Below the pieces are notes generated by a model. That model ran no database searches and was not told the origin of the DNA. It saw only the letters and a program-made list of their open reading frames with translations. A program made the translations under genes and the position numbers. Below are positions 115 to 49,035 of a stretch of 64,000 bases of DNA, piece after piece (position 1 is the first letter of the stretch; every line of letters begins with the position of its first letter). This DNA comes from Bauldia sp. GTDB lineage: Bacteria > Pseudomonadota > Alphaproteobacteria > Rhizobiales > Kaistiaceae. The stretch spans positions 1 through 64,000 of the forward strand of contig JADLGL010000017.1 of the NCBI GenBank assembly GCA_020849325.1. Direction: 5' to 3'.

Positions 115-3100
115 CTACGTGACGCGAGCCACGAGCTCGCAGATGCGTTCGAGGTAGAGGCGCTTTTCGATCGGGTTGGTCCCGGAGCGCAGGAAGGCGG
201 GGATCTTCGTGAACCAGTCGTCGGGGTCCGTGAGCCGCTGGCGGATGAGGGACTCGATCATCGCGTCGCGGAGGATCGACCGGTGCGGCTCGAACTGCGG
301 CGAGGCGGGGCGGATCACCGTCTCGCGGAGCTCGGCCAGCACGGCCCACACTTCCGTCTCCGTGAGCGGGCCGGCGTCGGGCGACGCGTTCGTGAGGGTC
401 GTGCTCCCGGCGGCTTGGGCAGCGGCATCATCGGAGGCGATGTCAGGCGCGGGCGCGTCGGGCGGGCGACGGGTGTCCGCCGCTGATCCATCGCCGCCGC
501 CGGCGTCTCCCGCGTCCGGCGGGCGGACGTCGTCGGGGAAGAGAGGGAGGGGTGGCACTTCGACGAGCCCCGCTTTCTCGCCTTCCTCCCCGGGGCTCAG
601 TCCCGATGGCGCCGTTGCAGCCTCGGCCGGCGTGTCGCGTCGGCCGTCTCCCCCCGGCGTGTCGCGTTGGTCGCCGCCTGCCGGCGTGTCGCCCTCGCGG
701 GCCCCGTCGCCCGAGGGTGCCGCGGCGCCCGGCTCCGCGCGTCCGGCGATCCGGTAGTCGAGCCAGCCGGAGGGCCGCGTGCCGCGGCGGAGCTCGTCGA
801 GTTTGGCGACGAGCCGGTCGGCCTGGGTGTCGGGGTCGTCGAACCAGTCCGTCGACCAGACGCGAAGGATGGTCCAGCCGAGGCCGCGAAGCACCTCCTC
901 GCGGAGGCGATCGCGGTCGCGCGCGTTCCGGCTCGCATGGTAGCGCGCGCCGTCGCATTCGATGCCGGCGAGGAAGGTGTCGGGCCGGTCGGGATGGCGG
1001 ACGCCGAGGTCGATCCGGAACCCCGACACGCCTACCTGGAGGTCGACGTCGTAGCCGCGCTTCCGGAGACGCTCGGCGACCTCGATCTCGAAGTCGCTGT
1101 CGGGGTCGCGACCGGTGGCCGTCGCCGCCGCGCGACCGCCGGTCTCGGCGTATTGGAGGTACTCCTTCAGCACGCGGACGCCGCGGTGGGTGGCCGTTCC
1201 CGGCCTGATGTCGGTCGATCCGAACGAGGCGAACAGGACGATGCGGAGGCGGGCGCGCGAGAAGAGAACGTTGAGCCGCCGGTGGCCGTTGGCGCTGTTG
1301 ATCGGTCCGAAACGCTGCGCGAGGACGGTCGAATCCTCCGCCATGCCGTACGTCATCGAGATGAAGACGAAGTCGCGCTCGTCGCCCTGCACGTTCTCGA
1401 GGTTCTTGACGAACACGCCTTCGCCGCGCCGGCCGGTCTTCTCCTGGAACGCCTCCACCAGCGGATCGCCGGCCGACAGGCGCCACAGCGTCTCTTCGAT
1501 GAGGTCGCGCTGCTCGATGTTGAGCGCCACGATGCCGAGGCTCGGCGGCTCGTCCGCCGCGGCGAAGTGGTGCATGAAGGCGATCGCCTCCTCCGTCAGC
1601 CGCTCGGCCTCGACGACGTTCCGTCGGGCGGCAAAGGCGCCGTCGGCGCGCACGAGATCGACCGAGAACGACCCCGGCCGCGCCGCGGGAAACGTGACGA
1701 GGCTGCCGTCGTAGAACTGCTCGTTCGAGAAGCGGATGAGGCTCTCGCAGCGGCTCCGGTAGTGCCATTTCAGGCGGCGCAGCCGGCCGAAAACCTTCTC
1801 GCAGCGTTCGAGGATGGACTCGTCGTCGACCTCGTCCGCCTCCCCGTCATCGCTGCCGCCTTCGGCCGAGCGCTCGAAGAACGAGGTCGGCGGCAGCTGC
1901 TTCGGATCGCCGACCACGACGATCTGCCTGGCGCGCAGCATCGCGCCGAGCGCATCCTCGGGCCGCATCTGCGAGGCCTCGTCGATGACGAGGACGTCGA
2001 AGGAGAAGCTTCCGGGCGGCAGGAACTTCGCCAGCGACAGCGGCGACATCATGAAGCACGGCTTCAGCGCCCGCACGGAGGCGGGCGCGCGGCGGAGGAG
2101 ATCGCGGACCGGCGCGAGCTGCTTCTGCTTCTGGAATTCGTGCCACAGGAGCGCCATCTCCGTCCAGGTCCTTACCGACCCGGACCGCTCGCCCGCCGGC
2201 GGCGTCCGGCGGAGGAGCGTCGCGCGGACGGCGGCGCGGTCGGCTTCCTTCTTCCGGCGATCGCGCTCGACGAAGGTCTGCCGCTTCGCGTCGAGATCGA
2301 TGCCGGTACGCCGGGCCAGCGGTTCGGAACTGCGCCGCGCCGCCTCCGCCCGCCGCCCGGCAATTGCTGCGTCGAACAGCGCCGGCAGTCGGTCGGGCGC
2401 GATTTCCGCACGGTCGGCGCCGGCGAGGAGTTCTCCGAGGCCAGCTCCGTCGAGACCGCCCCTGAGGCGGCGGAGTGCCACGAAATCCGCCAGTGCGGGC
2501 GCCTGTTCGAGGAGGGAATCGACGTGCGCGCGGCGTTCGCCGTCCGGGACGAAGGCGATGTCCGGCAGGCCCGCCGCCGCCACGTCGTCGAGCGCCTCGG
2601 CGTGGCGGGTTTCTGCATCGCCCCACGTCGCGGCCGCCTCGCGCAGCGCCTCGCGGGTGATGGCGGGCGTCGCGAGGAGCGCGGCGGAGAGCGGCTCCGG
2701 CAGGCCGGCCGATCGGACCGTCCGGACGAAGACGACGGCATCGACGATCCGCTGGACGCCCGTAAGGTCGCCCGCCAGCGACCGCGCCGCCGGTGCGAGC
2801 GCGGCTGCGTCGAACGCCTCGCGCGCGGCTTTCGCCGCGCGTCGTGCGTCCCCGATCGCCGCGAGGCGCCCGATGGGGAGGTCGACCGTGACGAGGACGC
2901 GGTCGGGGTCCTTTGCCGTGATTTCGCCGAGCGCGGCGACCTCGCCGTCGCACGCCGCCCGGAGGCCATGAAGGGGCGTCGAATCGAAGAGAGCGCCGAA
3001 GGCGGGGCGCCCGTCGCGATAGCGGGCGGCGGCGCCGGCGTGCGTCGCGAGCCGCCCGAGCCCGTCGGGGCCGAGCCGGAACAGCGCTGCGGCGACGGTC

Positions 3101-5832
3101 GCGCCGCCGGGAAGGGCTCGGAGCAGGCGTTCTGCATCCTCGCGCGCGGCGATCGCGGCGCCGAGCGTCGGGAAGGGCGACGAGAGGCCGTTCCACGCGT
3201 CCGCGAAGACGGCCGGACCGGCGCGATCGGCCGCAAACGCGGTGAGCCGACGCTGGTGGTCCGCAACGCGGGCGAGGCGTTCGTAGCCGGTCGGGCCGTC
3301 GGCGAGCCCGAGCCGCGTCAGCGCCTCGCGGAGCGCCCTGCGCCCGAACAGTTTTGCCAGCCCGCCGCGCTGCGACTCGGCCACCGCGCTCGCGAGGAGG
3401 TCCGGGTCGGGCCAGTCCGGCTGTGTCTGCTGCGGCAGCAGCCGTCGAAGCTCGGCCTCCTCCCGCCGCAGGTCGCGCGCCGTAGCCTGGAGCCGCGCGA
3501 AATCGTCACCCCCGACCGCAACGGCGATCCAGCCGGCGAGGTCGGGCGGGAGCTGCGCCGCGAACAGGACCGCCTCGGCGACGGCTTCGAGGTGACCGGC
3601 CGGCGTCGAATCGGGCAATCCGAGCGCCGCGGCGGCCGGCGCCAGCTCGCCCGCGACCGCGGCGAAATCCCGGACGAGGGCGATCCGCCGCTCGACGGCC
3701 GCATAGATTTCGGCCGGCGTCCGCGAGGCGTAGGCGCCGCGCCAGAGGACATTCAGCGCGGCGGCACGCTCGATGACGATGTCGGCGAGGTGGTCGGCGC
3801 CGAGGGCCGCAAGGGAGTCCGCGGCTTCGAGGGCCCGCCGTCGGAGGGCCAGCGCGCCGTCGAGCCCGTCGAGGTCGTGCGGCAGGATCGCGGCAACGGC
3901 CGCGGCATCCGGAGCGAGGCCGAGGCTGCGGTCGGCGGCGACGGCCGCCGCGGCGTCGTCCGCTCCGATTTCGCGGAGGCCCGCCACCGCCTCGTCGAGC
4001 GCCGCCTGCCGGTCGCGAAGGGTCCGGAGCGCCGCCATCAGGGTTTCGCGCTCATCGCCGAGAAGGTCCGCGGGCGGCGTGCGCTGCCAGGGCGAGCGCG
4101 CCGGATGGCCATGCCGGTCGGCGAAATGGCGGGCCGCCGCGCCATACACCTCCACCTCGCCGCGGAGGGCGGGAAGGCGGAGCGGATCCCCGTCCGCCGC
4201 GCCGACCTTCGACCGCAGCACCTCGCGCGCATCGGTGAAGACCGATCGGCCGCGGATCGCCTCCCACATCAGGCGGAACGGCGTCGCGCCGTCGCCCTGC
4301 CGCTCGTGGAGGGCGTCGACATACGCCCGGATCTCGCTTCGGACGGCCCGCCAGGTCGGGTCGGACGTCGCCGCCGGCTCGTCCTCCGCCGCGAGGGCGT
4401 GGCGGTCGGCGAGGCTCTTCACGAAGGCGCGGGGCGATGCCTTGTCGGAGTGGAGCTCGAGGCAGAAATCACCGAGGCCGGCGATGTCGAGGCGCCGCTT
4501 CACCGCATCGAGGGCGGCCTGCTTCTCGGCGAGGAAGAGGACGCTCCTGCCCGCCGCGAGGAGGTTCGCGATCGCGTTGGTGATTGTCTGCGATTTCCCG
4601 GTTCCGGGCGGACCTTCGATGACGATGTTGCGGCCCGCCATGACGTCGATGAGGGCGCTGTGCTGGGACGAATCCGCGTCGTGGATCAGGATCGGCGCGA
4701 TCTTCTCGACCTCCGGATCGTCGATCGGATAGTCCTCCTGCGGCCGGTAGGCGGCGCCCTCCGCCGGCTCGGCGTCGAAGCCGGCGAGGAGCGCGCCGAC
4801 GAGCGTATGGTCGACCGGCTCCCCGGACCAGCGGGCGGGATCGGTATCCTCGTAGATCGCGATGCGGCTGAAGGCGAAGTGACCGAGGAGGAGCTGGCGC
4901 CGGACGCGCCAGCGCTTCAGGCCGTCGACCGCTGCCGTCACGGCCGCGAAATAGGCCTCGACGGACGCCGGCTCGTCCGATTCGCCGGCGTCGAAGTCGG
5001 GCAGCGTCCGGCCGAAATTGACCTCGAGGAACCGCCGCAGGCTGACATTGGTCTCGGCCTCGCCCTCCGCCGCCGCGATGCCGAACACACGGCGGCCCTT
5101 GCCGCGCCGCCGCTCCGGCCGCGTCACGCGGACGGGAAGGAGGAGGAGCGGCGCGAAATACGCTTTCTCGGAATCCTCGCTCTCGTACCATTCGAGGAAG
5201 CCGAAGGTGAGGAAGAGCGTCGAAAGGCCCGCCTCCTGCTCGGCGAGGCGCGCCTCCGAGGCGATCTTCTCCATCACCGCTTCGAGTTCGTCGGGGTATT
5301 TCAGGGTCTGGAGGCGCCGGTCGCCGTGCGATGCCTTGCTGCTGGACGGCGCGAGATCGATCGACGGGTCGATGCCGACCGAGCGCGCGTGGTCGTTCCG
5401 GTTGATCTCGGCGCGCGAGCGCCGCGGCGGCATGCCGAGCGCCGTCCGCACCCGATCCCGGAGGGTGCGATCGAGCCGTTCGATGGCGACATCGTCGTCC
5501 CGGCCGGCATCGGCGAGCGCGGCGAGCTGGGTCAGGTATTCGACATCGGCAACGCGCGCGTGCGCCAGCGCCGCGAGGAACTCCTCGTTCCGTTCGTCTT
5601 CCGGGGTGCCAGGCGGCTCCTCCAGCGGCTCGACGGTGAGCGTTGCCTCGCCGTTGCCGACGAGTCGCGCGTACACCTCTTCGAGAACCTCGTCGACGAT
5701 CTGGAGCTGCCGCTTCGACCGCGCCGCGATCGGGAAGGCGAGCATCCGGTTCTTTTTGGTGAGGTCGAGGAGCCGCTCGCGCAGTTTTCCGTAGAGCGCC
5801 GCCAGCCGGTCCCGTTCGGTTTCCACCGGCAT
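115..5832 (-). CDS. Giant DUF4011-type SF1 helicase with C-terminal Vsr/REase-like nuclease
   Basis: Predicted nucleic-acid helicase-nuclease of about 1905 aa. The N-terminal ~330 aa resemble DUF4011 (the start MPVETERDRLAALYGKLRER leads into LLDLTKKNRML). Walker A GPPGTGKS lies near residue 405. A long Ala/Arg-rich insert of roughly 800 aa separates it from the DEAS Walker B (near 1282), the GDPKQLPP motif and the C-terminal SF1 motifs (NVQGDERDF, then NVLFSRAR). Residues ~1575-1665 form a Vsr/MTES_1575-like endonuclease fold with FRIDL and GIECDGARYHAS. A Pro/Gly/Asp-rich linker with short repeats and an unassigned ~90-aa tail follow. I chose ATG 5832 over the upstream GTG 5871 because GGTGGAG precedes it. 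The gene is divergent from the 5985-10354 operon. Helicases of this architecture are usually defence-associated; the link to the neighbouring operon is inferred. Confidence 0.85.
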   Translation of the reverse strand: MPVETERDRLAALYGKLRERLLDLTKKNRMLAFPIAARSKRQLQIVDEVLEEVYARLVGNGEATLTVEPLEEPPGTPEDERNEEFLAALAHARVADVEYLTQLAALADAGRDDDVAIERLDRTLRDRVRTALGMPPRRSRAEINRNDHARSVGIDPSIDLAPSSSKASHGDRRLQTLKYPDELEAVMEKIASEARLAEQEAGLSTLFLTFGFLEWYESEDSEKAYFAPLLLLPVRVTRPERRRGKGRRVFGIAAAEGEAETNVSLRRFLEVNFGRTLPDFDAGESDEPASVEAYFAAVTAAVDGLKRWRVRRQLLLGHFAFSRIAIYEDTDPARWSGEPVDHTLVGALLAGFDAEPAEGAAYRPQEDYPIDDPEVEKIAPILIHDADSSQHSALIDVMAGRNIVIEGPPGTGKSQTITNAIANLLAAGRSVLFLAEKQAALDAVKRRLDIAGLGDFCLELHSDKASPRAFVKSLADRHALAAEDEPAATSDPTWRAVRSEIRAYVDALHERQGDGATPFRLMWEAIRGRSVFTDAREVLRSKVGAADGDPLRLPALRGEVEVYGAAARHFADRHGHPARSPWQRTPPADLLGDERETLMAALRTLRDRQAALDEAVAGLREIGADDAAAAVAADRSLGLAPDAAAVAAILPHDLDGLDGALALRRRALEAADSLAALGADHLADIVIERAAALNVLWRGAYASRTPAEIYAAVERRIALVRDFAAVAGELAPAAAALGLPDSTPAGHLEAVAEAVLFAAQLPPDLAGWIAVAVGGDDFARLQATARDLRREEAELRRLLPQQTQPDWPDPDLLASAVAESQRGGLAKLFGRRALREALTRLGLADGPTGYERLARVADHQRRLTAFAADRAGPAVFADAWNGLSSPFPTLGAAIAAREDAERLLRALPGGATVAAALFRLGPDGLGRLATHAGAAARYRDGRPAFGALFDSTPLHGLRAACDGEVAALGEITAKDPDRVLVTVDLPIGRLAAIGDARRAAKAAREAFDAAALAPAARSLAGDLTGVQRIVDAVVFVRTVRSAGLPEPLSAALLATPAITREALREAAATWGDAETRHAEALDDVAAAGLPDIAFVPDGERRAHVDSLLEQAPALADFVALRRLRGGLDGAGLGELLAGADRAEIAPDRLPALFDAAIAGRRAEAARRSSEPLARRTGIDLDAKRQTFVERDRRKKEADRAAVRATLLRRTPPAGERSGSVRTWTEMALLWHEFQKQKQLAPVRDLLRRAPASVRALKPCFMMSPLSLAKFLPPGSFSFDVLVIDEASQMRPEDALGAMLRARQIVVVGDPKQLPPTSFFERSAEGGSDDGEADEVDDESILERCEKVFGRLRRLKWHYRSRCESLIRFSNEQFYDGSLVTFPAARPGSFSVDLVRADGAFAARRNVVEAERLTEEAIAFMHHFAAADEPPSLGIVALNIEQRDLIEETLWRLSAGDPLVEAFQEKTGRRGEGVFVKNLENVQGDERDFVFISMTYGMAEDSTVLAQRFGPINSANGHRRLNVLFSRARLRIVLFASFGSTDIRPGTATHRGVRVLKEYLQYAETGGRAAATATGRDPDSDFEIEVAERLRKRGYDVDLQVGVSGFRIDLGVRHPDRPDTFLAGIECDGARYHASRNARDRDRLREEVLRGLGWTILRVWSTDWFDDPDTQADRLVAKLDELRRGTRPSGWLDYRIAGRAEPGAAAPSGDGAREGDTPAGGDQRDTPGGDGRRDTPAEAATAPSGLSPGEEGEKAGLVEVPPLPLFPDDVRPPDAGDAGGGDGSAADTRRPPDAPAPDIASDDAAAQAAGSTTLTNASPDAGPLTETEVWAVLAELRETVIRPASPQFEPHRSILRDAMIESLIRQRLTDPDDWFTKIPAFLRSGTNPIEKRLYLERICELVARVT
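620..700 (-). repeat. Short tandem repeats in helicase linker
   Basis: Three near-copies of CCGGCGTGTCGC, spaced about 27 bp apart, encode a repeated DTPAG/DTPGG motif in the low-complexity linker between the nuclease domain and the C-terminal tail of the giant helicase. It is probably a flexible tether and prone to length variation. Confidence 0.6.
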
Positions 5833-44829: not shown

Positions 44830-46089
44830 TTGCGCCAGAATGCATCTTGGTCGGCGCGGGGGCTCGCTACGTTCGGCACGCTCATCGCTGGTCTCCTCCT
44901 CCTCGCCGCGTGCAACGCCCGCGAGTTCACCTTCACCGGCCCGCCGCCGTCGATCCCGACCGGCGCGCCCGTCACCGGCGAGGTCCTCGGCACCGGCACG
45001 ATCCGCGTCGCGCTCCTCGTCCCGCTCTCGGCCAATGGCAATGCCGCGGAGGCCGCGCAGAACATCCGGAACGCCGCCCAGCTCGCTCTCCAGGAATTCT
45101 CGAACGCCAACATCCAGATTCTCGTGAAGGACGACCTCGGCACGCCCGAAGGCGCGCGCGCCGCCGCCACCGAGGCGATCAGCCAGGGCGCCGAGCTCAT
45201 CCTCGGCCCGCTCTTCGCCGCGTCCGTCTCCGCCGCCGCCGAGGTGGCGCGGCCGCAGAACATCCCGATGATCGCCTTCTCGACCGACGTCTCGGTCGCC
45301 ACCGCCGGCGTCTATCTCCTGTCGTTCCTGCCGCGGAACGACGTGCAGCGGATCATCCCCTACGCGGCGCAGAACGGCTACACCAACATCGCCGCGCTCC
45401 TCCCCGACAACGCCTACGGCACGCTCGCCGAAGCCGCGCTGCGCGAGACCGCGACGGCCTCGGGTGTCCGCATCGTCGCCGTCCAGCGCTACGCCCTCGA
45501 CCGCGCCGCGATGCAGCCGGCCGCGGAAGCGATCGCCGACCTCGTGATCGCCGGCCAGGCAGACGCCGTCTTCATGCCCGACGGCGGCGACGCCGCGCCT
45601 TTCCTGGCCCAGATCATGGCGGCGAAAGGCATCCGTCCGGGCCAGGTGAAGTTCCTCGGCAGCGGCCAGTGGAACGACAGCCGCATCCGCAGCGAGACCG
45701 CGCTCGCCGGCGGCTGGTATCCCGGCCCCGACCTCGCCGGCTTCCGCACCTTCTCGAGCCGCTACCAGACGGCGTTCGGCGCCACGCCCTTCGCGACCGC
45801 GACGCTCGGCTACGACGCGACGATCCTCGCCGCGGGCCTTGCCGCCAATTTCGGCCCCGCCCGCTTCGCCGCGGCCACCATCACCAACCCCAACGGCTTC
45901 CGCGGCATCGACGGCGCCTTCCGCTTCCTGCCGAACGGCCTCAACCAGCGGGCCCTCGCGATCTACGAGATCGACCGCAGCGGCACGGAGCGCGTCGTCG
46001 ACCCGGCCCCCACGGGCTTTGCCGGCGTGGCGGCGGCTACGACCACCGCACCCGTGGCCGGAGGCGCCCTCGCGGGGCTGTTCAACTAG
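44830..46089 (+). CDS. LpoA-like lipoprotein (penicillin-binding protein activator)
   Basis: 419 aa. A lipoprotein signal (LIAGLLLLAAC, lipobox LAAC) is followed by a periplasmic-binding-protein type I fold: TIRVALLVPLSANGNAAEA, AELILGPLFAASVSAAAEVA, IPMIAFSTDVSVA. The family includes LpoA, which activates PBP1A, and amino-acid-binding proteins; the rsmI-yraN neighbourhood supports the LpoA-like group. PBP1A is encoded in this window at 60317. The start is TTG 44830. Confidence 0.85.
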   Translation: MRQNASWSARGLATFGTLIAGLLLLAACNAREFTFTGPPPSIPTGAPVTGEVLGTGTIRVALLVPLSANGNAAEAAQNIRNAAQLALQEFSNANIQILVKDDLGTPEGARAAATEAISQGAELILGPLFAASVSAAAEVARPQNIPMIAFSTDVSVATAGVYLLSFLPRNDVQRIIPYAAQNGYTNIAALLPDNAYGTLAEAALRETATASGVRIVAVQRYALDRAAMQPAAEAIADLVIAGQADAVFMPDGGDAAPFLAQIMAAKGIRPGQVKFLGSGQWNDSRIRSETALAGGWYPGPDLAGFRTFSSRYQTAFGATPFATATLGYDATILAAGLAANFGPARFAAATITNPNGFRGIDGAFRFLPNGLNQRALAIYEIDRSGTERVVDPAPTGFAGVAAATTTAPVAGGALAGLFN

Positions 46090-46219
46090 TCCGAACGCCC
46101 GCCACGCCTACGGCCGTGACGTTCTCGCCGCGCGATTCGGACGCCCTTGTCAACTGGGTGATTGCAACAAACCTATTGACATGCGATTCGAGGGGACTGC
46201 GAGTCGCCTTGGGATTGAT

Positions 46220-46783
46220 ATGAGACTACCGGGATACAACGTGCGCAAGGCCGCTCAGTTGGTTGCATTCTTCGCAACTAAGCAGGGCGGGCGCATCAAT
46301 GTCCTGAAGCTGTCGAAGCTGGTCTATCTCTCGGACAGAGAGCATATGAGCCGCTACGACATGCCGATCCTGTTTGACAAACTGGTCTCTATGGACCACG
46401 GGCCGGTGAACTCTCTCACGCTCAACCATATCAATGGGATGAGCTATGATGAGCGGCCGGAATGGACCGCCTTCGTCTCTGACCGATCGGAGTACGAGGT
46501 AGGGACGTCAAAGCCAGATATTGGCATTGACGATCTGGACGAGCTGAGTGACGCTGAGTTAGACGTACTTGAGTATGTTTGGCTAACGTTTGGGCACATG
46601 GGCAAGTATCAACTCCGCGATGAGACCCATCGACTTTGCCCAGAGTGGGAAGATCCTCATGGGTCATCGGAGTTGATCCCCTACAGCCGCGTGTTCAAGT
46701 TCCTCGGTAAGAACGGCGACGTTCTTGCCGAGCGGGTGGACACCATCCGAAGCTTGGACACCATCTTTGATGGTCGGAGCTAG
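46220..46783 (+). CDS. Panacea (DUF4065) SocA-like antitoxin
   Basis: 187 aa. NVRKAAQLVAFFATKQGGRI, VLKLSKLVYLSDREHMSRY and SMDHGPVNSLTLNHINGM form the Panacea domain, a broad antitoxin fold that blocks many unrelated toxins. A C-terminal part follows with YSRVFKFLGKNGDV. The start is ATG 46220; an upstream ATG at 46181 is possible. It overlaps the next gene by 14 bp. The DNA is AT-richer than its neighbours, and the codon use differs, which suggests recent transfer. Confidence 0.8.
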   Translation: MRLPGYNVRKAAQLVAFFATKQGGRINVLKLSKLVYLSDREHMSRYDMPILFDKLVSMDHGPVNSLTLNHINGMSYDERPEWTAFVSDRSEYEVGTSKPDIGIDDLDELSDAELDVLEYVWLTFGHMGKYQLRDETHRLCPEWEDPHGSSELIPYSRVFKFLGKNGDVLAERVDTIRSLDTIFDGRS

Positions 46784-47177
46784 TTTCGATCCTCAAAAGG
46801 GAAAGACACTTCTCATTCAATCCGGTTCAGCAGACGAGCCGGATAAGAAGCACCTATTTGTCATAGCTACCGGCCCGGATGACAAAGGCTGGTTCCTCTT
46901 GTTCTCGGTTTGCACCATCGACGCCGGCGTTTATCATGACCATGCCTGCATAATTAAGGCCGGTGAGCATCCATTCATCGTTGCCGACTCGTATGTGCTT
47001 TATGCCAAGCCGATGGCAGCACACCACGATGGTCTGAAGAAGAAGACCGATGGATGGGTGTACTACGAGAAGGCGCCTGTTTCTGCGGACCTTCTCGTCA
47101 GGATCGTGGACGGTGCTGACAAGTCACGACACACGCCCCGATGGGCCAAGGTTTCTATGCGAAACGCGAAGGGATAA
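46770..47177 (+). CDS. Putative toxin partner of the Panacea protein, unknown family
   Basis: 135 aa. Seen: GKTLLIQSGSADEPDKKHLF, FVIATGPDDKGWFLLFSVCT, YHDHACIIKAGEHPFIVADS and a basic C-terminus (SRHTPRWAKVSMRNAKG). The first part, with a Lys-Lys-His turn and repeated beta strands, is reminiscent of the PemK/MazF SH3-like fold, but I cannot assign it. ATG 46770 lies inside the upstream gene, as in coupled toxin-antitoxin pairs. Same AT-richer composition as the partner. Confidence 0.6.
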   Translation: MVGASFDPQKGKTLLIQSGSADEPDKKHLFVIATGPDDKGWFLLFSVCTIDAGVYHDHACIIKAGEHPFIVADSYVLYAKPMAAHHDGLKKKTDGWVYYEKAPVSADLLVRIVDGADKSRHTPRWAKVSMRNAKG

Positions 47178-47242
47178 GGAACCGGCCACGCAATTCGTGG
47201 GTGGCGAGGTTTTGTGCGTGCGACTGAGCTGCGGCGGCTGGT

Positions 47243-48397
47243 CTACGCCGCCAGATCCGCCACCACGGCATCCAGCACGAACGATCCCGCCCGCGTCACC
47301 CGCACCCGGTGGTCGGCGAGCTTTTCCACCATGCCGTGGGCCGTGAGGTCCGACAGCCGGGCCGGGTCGAGCGCGCGGCCGGCGAGGGCGACGTAGCGGC
47401 GGAGGTCGATCCCCTCGCTCAGGCGAAGGCCCATCAGCAGCATTTCGTCGGACTCCTGCTCGGGCGTCAGCAGTTCGTCGACCTCGGTCCCGTCGCCCCA
47501 GGATTCGACGCGGGACAGCCATGTCTCCGGCTCCCGAGCCGTCGACGTCGCGTGGCGGCCATCCTCCAGCAGGAGCCGGCCATGCGCGCCGGGGCCGATG
47601 CCGGCATATTCGCCGTAGCGCCAGTAGAGGAGGTTGTGGCGGCACTCCGCGCCGGGCGCGGCGTGGTTCGAGATCTCGTAGGCCGGCCGGCCGTGGCGGT
47701 CGCACACCTCCTGCGTCAGCGCGTAGAGCGTCGCCGCCGTGTCTTCGTCGGGAACGGCGAGTTTTCCGGCGCGGTAGAGCGCGTGGTAGGCGGTCCCTTC
47801 CTCGATGGTGAGCTGGTAGAGCGAGATGTGGTCCGACGCGCGCGACAGCGCCTCGGAAAGCTCCGCCGCCCACGCCTCCGGCGTCTGGCCGGGGCGGGCA
47901 TAGATGAGATCGTAGCTCGTCCGCTCGAACGTTTTCTGCGCGATCTCGATCGCCTTCCACGCCTCGGCGACGTTGTGGAGCCGCCCGAGCGTGCGGAGGT
48001 CGGCGTCGTTGAGCGCCTGGACCCCGAGCGACACCCGCGTCACCCCCGCCGCGCGGTAGCCGCGGAACCGCTCCGCCTCGACGCTCGACGGATTGGCCTC
48101 CATCGTGATCTCGGCGCCCGGCGCAATCGTCCACGCTCTCCCGATGGCGTCGAGGACGCGCCCCACCGTTTCCGGCTTCATCAGCGACGGCGTGCCGCCG
48201 CCGAGAAAGATGCTGCCGACAGTTCGTCCCGGCGTCTTCGCCGCCGTCGCCTCGATCTCGCGGACGAACGCGGCGGCGTAGCGCTCCTGATCGACCGGCT
48301 GGTGCCGGACGTGGCTGTTGAAGTCGCAATACGGGCATTTGGCGGCGCAGAACGGCCAGTGGACGTAGACGCCGAAACCTGCGTCGGACGGGTTCAT
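47243..48397 (-). CDS. hemW: Radical SAM heme chaperone HemW
   Basis: 384 aa. GVYVHWPFCAAKCPYCDFNS holds the CxxxCxYC iron-sulfur cluster site; SIFLGGGTPSLM and VSLGVQALNDADLRTLGR are typical of HemW, and the coproporphyrinogen-oxidase-specific residues are not expected. It inserts heme into respiratory enzymes. ATG 48397 is preferred to the ORF-track start. The start overlaps the rdgB stop by 1 bp. Confidence 0.95.
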   Translation of the reverse strand: MNPSDAGFGVYVHWPFCAAKCPYCDFNSHVRHQPVDQERYAAAFVREIEATAAKTPGRTVGSIFLGGGTPSLMKPETVGRVLDAIGRAWTIAPGAEITMEANPSSVEAERFRGYRAAGVTRVSLGVQALNDADLRTLGRLHNVAEAWKAIEIAQKTFERTSYDLIYARPGQTPEAWAAELSEALSRASDHISLYQLTIEEGTAYHALYRAGKLAVPDEDTAATLYALTQEVCDRHGRPAYEISNHAAPGAECRHNLLYWRYGEYAGIGPGAHGRLLLEDGRHATSTAREPETWLSRVESWGDGTEVDELLTPEQESDEMLLMGLRLSEGIDLRRYVALAGRALDPARLSDLTAHGMVEKLADHRVRVTRAGSFVLDAVVADLAA

Positions 48398-49035
48398 CAG
48401 CCGCCCATCGCCTCGGCCGCGAAGGCCGCGAAGGCGCGGGCGCGGTGGGAGAGCGGCGGCAGCGGCGGGTTCCAGCCGTGCTTCTCCTCGGCGCTCATCT
48501 CGCCGAACGTCCGGGTGTGACCGTCGGGCTGGAACATCGCGTCGTAGCCGAACCCCTGCGTGCCGCGCGGCGGCCATACCAGCGTTCCCGCGATCTCGCC
48601 GCGCCAGGTGTCGACGGCGCCGGCCGGCGTCGCGAGCGCGAGGACCGCGACGAACGTACCGCGCCGCGTCTCCGGCGTCGTGGCGCCCGCGGCCTCGAGC
48701 CGCCGCTCCACCTCGCGCATGGCGGCATCGAAATCCTTCGCCGGCCCGGCCCAGCGGGCGGAATGGATGCCCGGCTCGCCGCCGAGCGCATCGACCGCCA
48801 GGCCGGAATCGTCGGCCAGCGCCGGGAGGCCCGACGCGAGCGCGGCGACCTTCGCCTTGATGATGGCGTTCTCCTCGAACGTCACCCCGGTCTCCTCCGG
48901 CTCCTGCAGGCCGAGCGCGCCGGCCGCGACGACGTCGACGCCGAACGGCCGAATCAGCTGCTGCAGCTCGCGCACCTTCCCGGAATTGTGGCTCGCGACC
49001 AGCAGCCTGTCACCTCGCGCGAAACGCCTGACCAT
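48397..49035 (-). CDS. rdgB: dITP/XTP pyrophosphatase
   Basis: 212 aa. [58 protein letters not shown] and [20 protein letters not shown] are the RdgB/HAM1 signature. It removes deaminated purine nucleotides. The ORF track joins it to the upstream rph antisense region; ATG 49035 starts it correctly. It sits between rph and hemW. Confidence 0.98.

What the first reader, a model, noticed from the sequence alone, without database searches (positions are those of the whole stretch)
46090..47242. Panacea toxin-antitoxin-like pair with an unrecognised partner in AT-richer DNA
A DUF4065 protein overlaps by 14 bp a 135-aa gene with no family I know; both use AT-richer codons than the neighbours. Panacea proteins neutralise very diverse toxins, so this partner may be a new toxin type. 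Its N-terminal half slightly recalls PemK/MazF.
Basis: partly seen in the sequence, partly recalled or inferred. Interest (0 to 1): 0.62.

Follow-up and report, generated by a model that had tools for sequence, protein, structure and literature searches.

The report
Panacea antitoxin with MazF-fold toxin partner
This is a small, horizontally acquired two-gene toxin-antitoxin module in which a known all-purpose antitoxin (Panacea) sits next to a toxin that folds like the RNA-cutting enzyme MazF; it belongs to a phage- and plasmid-borne family that closely matches an already described pair, so it is ordinary rather than a new toxin type.

Summary
A Panacea/DUF4065 gene (46220-46783, +; Pfam SocA_Panacea E=4.8e-19) overlaps a 135-aa gene (46770-47177, +) by 14 bp, in DNA of about 53-54% GC against 69-73% for the neighbours. 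The pair is an insertion: the flanking convergent genes lie 74 bp or less apart in 8 of 9 relatives, and both genes are absent from the 24 other same-family genomes searched.

The partner is not a new toxin type. It belongs to an unnamed family (phrog_19071). A Panacea gene sits directly upstream in all 100 loci with enough upstream DNA (43 non-redundant pairs), and the two proteins co-diverge (Mantel r=0.83). Its AlphaFold2 model (pLDDT 94.7) matches MazF/PemK structures best. Its profile reaches phage protein phiOS31_p24, which others tied to MazF endonucleases. The Panacea clade matches the start of P. moraviensis PanA, whose partner toxin blocks translation (Kurata 2022).

Sequence profiles do not detect PemK/MazF, and MazF's catalytic Arg appears replaced by an invariant His, so 'works like MazF' is better supported than 'is a MazF'. 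Toxicity, neutralisation and RNase activity were not tested here. Verdict: new member of a known kind.

The parts
46220..46783 (+). panA: standalone Panacea (SocA_Panacea, PF13274) antitoxin, 187 aa
   Evidence: Pfam E=4.8e-19; AlphaFold2 pLDDT 94.7, mostly helical with a small beta element and a C-terminal helix; no HTH/PAD1/ZBD N-terminal domain matched
46770..47177 (+). panT: predicted MazF-fold toxin, 135 aa, PHROG family phrog_19071
   Evidence: phrog_19071 E=2e-17; AlphaFold2 pLDDT 94.7; Foldseek PDB top 50 all MazF/PemK or CcdB
46770..46783 (+). 14-bp overlap of panA 3' end and panT 5' end (probable translational coupling)
   Evidence: most homologous pairs overlap by 4 bp or lie within about 20 bp
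46090..47242 (.). inserted AT-richer segment between the Peripla_BP_6/LppC-like lipoprotein gene (stop at 46089) and hemW (stop at 47243)
   Evidence: gap 1153 bp here; 74 bp or less in 8 of 9 relatives with the same gene order, 553 bp in the ninth; no convincing bounding repeat

Best explanation
A mobile type II toxin-antitoxin pair of the PanAT kind. PanT is a small beta-barrel protein of the MazF/CcdB fold that most likely cuts RNA and so stops translation. PanA, translated first and coupled to panT by the overlapping frames, binds PanT and holds it inactive. PanA is a standalone Panacea domain, the class shown by others to neutralise its toxin directly. The pair is inherited as a unit and moves between phages, plasmids and chromosomes; in the host of the window it arrived between two conserved convergent genes. 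The likely benefit is stabilisation of the carrying element and/or abortive defence against phages. Shown here: gene pair, strict linkage, co-divergence, predicted fold, horizontal insertion. Inferred: toxicity, RNase activity, neutralisation by binding, defence role.
For: Panacea domain in PanA. The partner family has PanA directly upstream in 100/100 testable loci, with loci selected on the toxin alone. Conversely 13/13 strong PanA hits in 399 genomes carry this PanT, one of them in a degraded state. In 41 near relatives both genes occur together in 2 genomes and neither occurs elsewhere. Mantel r=0.83, 0 of 2000 permutations as high, 43 non-redundant pairs. AlphaFold2 pLDDT 94.7; the top 50 PDB matches are all MazF/PemK (Foldseek prob about 1.0, E from 1.8e-3, TM about 0.5-0.6) plus a few CcdB; named hits at the top of the viral library are endoribonuclease/PemK-like. 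hhalign of the family profile against phiOS31_p24: E=1.9e-5 over 117 columns; that protein was published as an HHpred match to MazF-type COG2337 (98.94%) next to a DUF4065 gene (PMC7556043). Kurata 2022 (PMC8832971): P. moraviensis PanT lacks CDD hits, is MazF-like by HHpred, specifically blocks protein synthesis, and is bound and neutralised by PanA; that PanA starts MIFSEQKVAQ, identical to the Pseudomonas phage Sirocco PanA of this clade, which starts at GTG.
Against: No sequence-level match to PemK/MazF: Pfam PF02452 none for any of 13 members, hhalign against a small PemK profile 0.2% probability, PDB sequence search none. MazF's catalytic Arg appears replaced by invariant His28. The structural match is moderate (TM 0.5-0.6, rmsd about 4 A, best E just above 0.001). 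The P. moraviensis toxin sequence itself could not be fetched. Nothing was tested in cells.
Confidence: 0.83

Rival explanations
1. PanAT pair whose MazF-fold toxin is not an RNase but hits another target (for example DNA gyrase, as CcdB does with the same fold, or a new substrate through its changed active site).
For: CcdB structures appear among the fold matches; the catalytic Arg of MazF is replaced by invariant His28, and D57, C60 and S74 are invariant in this family.
Against: MazF/PemK structures outrank CcdB. T49, at the position of MazF Thr52/Thr48 by sequence register, is Ser/Thr in 42 of 43 members. The probable family member P. moraviensis PanT blocks translation specifically (PMC8832971).
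Confidence: 0.1
2. SocAB-like (type VI) pair: PanA works as a protease adaptor that delivers PanT to ClpXP instead of inhibiting it by binding.
For: PanA shares the SocA_Panacea domain.
Against: NCBIfam SocA model scores 18.3 bits against a cut-off of 190; Kurata 2022 found that neutralisation by the PanAs tested does not need ClpXP or Lon, and pull-downs showed stable complexes including P. moraviensis.
Confidence: 0.05
3. A decayed or non-functional relic of an integrated phage or plasmid module.
For: No phage genes or bounding repeats at the site; one homologue elsewhere has a degraded toxin.
Against: Both reading frames are intact, carry the invariant residues of the family alignments and give high-confidence models.
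Confidence: 0.05

Closest known systems
PanA/PanT of Pseudomonas moraviensis (Kurata et al. 2022, PMC8832971)
   Same: Standalone Panacea antitoxin apparently of the same clade, judged by its ten N-terminal residues; small toxin without CDD hits, MazF-like by HHpred; validated toxin-antitoxin pair, translation blocked, complex pulled down
   Different: Sequence not available here for direct comparison; the window pair is a divergent chromosomal member in another class
phiOS31_p23/p24 of Serratia phage OS31 (PMC7556043)
   Same: DUF4065 gene overlapping a MazF-like toxin gene; p24 aligns to the window family profile over 117 columns, E=1.9e-5
   Different: Not found by BLAST from the window protein; its PanA is outside the tight clade
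MazF/PemK/Kid mRNA interferases (PF02452)
   Same: Predicted fold; Ser/Thr near the catalytic Thr position
   Different: No detectable sequence similarity; catalytic Arg apparently replaced by invariant His28; antitoxin is Panacea, not MazE/PemI
SocAB of Caulobacter
   Same: Panacea domain in the antitoxin
   Different: Far below the SocA model cut-off; SocA acts as a ClpXP adaptor, which PanAs tested by Kurata did not need

Membership tests
PanAT (Panacea toxin-antitoxin) | Antitoxin carries a Panacea/DUF4065 domain | tested here: met
   PF13274 69.8 bits against a cut-off of 25.7
PanAT (Panacea toxin-antitoxin) | Second gene within 100 nt, arrangement conserved in several species | tested here: met
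   14-bp overlap; 100/100 testable loci, 43 non-redundant pairs
PanAT (Panacea toxin-antitoxin) | Partner is not a spurious neighbour (reciprocal linkage) | tested here: met
   13/13 strong PanA hits have the partner family; joint presence/absence in 41 relatives
PanAT (Panacea toxin-antitoxin) | Toxin inhibits growth; antitoxin rescues and binds it | not testable with these tools
   Needs expression and pull-down; shown by others for P. moraviensis (PMC8832971)
MazF/PemK mRNA interferase | Sequence match to PF02452 | tested here: not met
   No member matches at E<=10; hhalign 0.2%
MazF/PemK mRNA interferase | MazF/CcdB beta-barrel fold | tested here: met
   Predicted model only: pLDDT 94.7, PDB top hits all MazF/PemK/CcdB
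MazF/PemK mRNA interferase | Catalytic Arg (R25/R29) and Thr (T48/T52) | tested here: inconclusive
   Register from sequence only: Arg column is His28 in 43/43; Thr column is S/T in 42/43; roles of R29/T52 from PMC10893535
MazF/PemK mRNA interferase | Sequence-specific RNA cleavage | not testable with these tools
   Needs a biochemical assay
SocAB (type VI) | Antitoxin meets the SocA equivalog model | tested here: not met
   18.3 bits against a cut-off of 190
phrog_19071 | Profile match | tested here: met
   E=2e-17 for the window protein; 28/28 family members

The most novel reading that the evidence does not exclude
The family is a diverged branch of the MazF fold with a rebuilt active site (invariant His28, Asp57, Cys60, Ser74 and Ser/Thr49 in place of the Arg/Thr pair), so its chemistry or target could differ from known mRNA interferases while staying dedicated to Panacea antitoxins.
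Probability: 0.2. Interest if true: 0.4.

Novelty: new member of a known kind. Interest (0 to 1): 0.22.

Why it matters
It gives a probable fold and mechanism to an unannotated phage protein family (phrog_19071) and shows that its link to one Panacea clade is strict and co-diverging, against the background of frequent partner swapping described for Panacea. Carriage in phages, including the cos-portal interval of a P2-like phage where defence genes gather, makes an anti-phage role worth testing.

Tried and rejected
Single-protein scans of genome and viral contigs with the window protein found nothing because it is too divergent; the 13-member alignment was too variable for pattern scans, so a four-member phage sub-alignment was used. 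A sequence-profile link to PemK/MazF failed. PanA's own fold has no PDB match. DNA similarity to plasmids: none. A promoter and terminator scan gave one weak promoter-like match inside panT and no terminator, no more than chance. ARAGORN's tRNA-Pro at 48634-48718 lies inside the rdgB-like reading frame and is probably spurious.

Full report
Observation. The Panacea gene (46220-46783) and the 135-aa gene (46770-47177) are present as described, overlapping by 14 bp on the + strand. PanA matches SocA_Panacea (PF13274, E=4.8e-19); the partner matches no Pfam, NCBIfam or PADLOC model, but does match PHROG family phrog_19071 of unknown function (E=2e-17). GC is 0.54/0.53 and GC3 0.69/0.60 for the pair, against 0.69-0.73 and 0.88-0.94 for neighbouring genes.

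Setting. The pair lies between the convergent genes of a Peripla_BP_6/LppC-like lipoprotein and hemW. In nine relatives with that gene order the interval is -4 to 74 bp in eight and 553 bp in one; here it is 1153 bp. Neither gene occurs in the 24 other same-family genomes searched, including two of the same genus; one more distant genome of the order has both, side by side on another contig. So the pair was acquired horizontally. No bounding repeat or phage gene was found at the site, and how it got in is not known.

The partner family. Searches with the partner alone found relatives on plasmids (Acetobacter, Phaeobacter, Endozoicomonas, Acinetobacter), in phages (Yersinia YeP1-3, Pseudomonas Sirocco, Escherichia SKA5, a Vibrio tailless phage, a Helicobacter prophage, a Klebsiella phage) and in about 3% of sampled Pseudomonadota genomes. 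Every copy examined lies directly downstream of a Panacea gene. Over all fetched loci, 100 of 100 with upstream DNA have it; the other 20 are contigs that begin at the toxin. From the other side, all 13 strong PanA hits (E<1e-30) among 399 genomes have this partner, one in a degraded form, while weaker PanA hits have other partners. PanA and PanT distances correlate at r=0.83 over 43 non-redundant pairs, with 0 of 2000 permutations as high. Shared ancestry of the carriers contributes to this figure, but the carriers are mobile, which makes joint inheritance the simplest reading.

Fold and mechanism. AlphaFold2 on 28 aligned members gives pLDDT 94.7. The 50 best PDB matches are all MazF/PemK-type toxins, with CcdB (same fold) lower down; best E=1.8e-3, probability 1.0, TM 0.5-0.6. 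Viral matches with names at the top are endoribonuclease or PemK-like. Sequence methods do not reach PF02452. A bridge exists: phiOS31_p24 of a Serratia phage, published as a MazF-type (COG2337) HHpred match beside a DUF4065 gene (PMC7556043), aligns with the family profile over 117 columns at E=1.9e-5. By sequence register, the catalytic Thr of MazF corresponds to T49 (Ser/Thr in 42/43) and the catalytic Arg to an invariant His28 (roles of Arg29/Thr52 from PMC10893535). The register was not checked on coordinates, so the active site is inferred.

Link to a tested toxin. Kurata et al. 2022 (PMC8832971) validated PanA-PanT of P. moraviensis: the toxin has no CDD hit, is MazF-like by HHpred, specifically blocks protein synthesis, and forms a complex with PanA. 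They extended that PanA by MIFSEQKVAQ at an upstream start. The Sirocco phage PanA of this clade reads (GTG)IFSEQKVAQ followed by Met, exactly that arrangement, and its partner is a member of the window family. It is therefore very likely, though not directly shown, that P. moraviensis PanT belongs here too. Ernits et al. 2023 (PMC10440598) found that standalone Panacea domains neutralise toxins directly; no added HTH, PAD1 or ZBD domain was recognised in the window PanA.

Role. Carriage by phages fits addiction or defence. In the P2-like phage Sirocco the pair lies near the end of the genome next to the portal gene, the interval described as a defence hotspot in P2-like phages (PMC9122126); in an IMG/VR prophage it sits downstream of what look like tail genes. 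This is suggestive only.

Verdict. Observation confirmed; toxin-antitoxin reading supported; 'new toxin type' not supported. It is a new member of a known kind, with a modest open question about its changed active site.

Noticed in passing
L163:1488-2515 (genome G407): A homologous pair with an intact PanA but a PanT whose family similarity ends after about 25 residues, that is, a broken toxin beside a kept antitoxin.
   Followed up: partly
L172 around 3001-3555 (Escherichia phage PhiR5_2): A PanA homologue without any recognisable PanT next to it, with an in-frame stop within the matched stretch.
   Followed up: partly
L134:1100-1453 (-) and L137:980-1375 (-): Partners of distant PanA homologues align collinearly but weakly with the PanT family profile (hhalign E=0.015 and 0.11); together with phiOS31_p24 this hints at a wider MazF-fold group of Panacea toxins.
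   Followed up: partly
L151:2650-3200 (genome G752): The same lipoprotein-hemW interval holds a different 553-bp stretch in another genome, so the site may accept foreign DNA repeatedly.
   Followed up: no
L007:4369-5199 (Phaeobacter plasmid): A gene annotated as an abortive infection family protein lies directly beyond the homologous pair.
   Followed up: no
window 48634-48718 (-): ARAGORN calls a tRNA-Pro (cgg) inside the rdgB-like reading frame; probably spurious.
   Followed up: no
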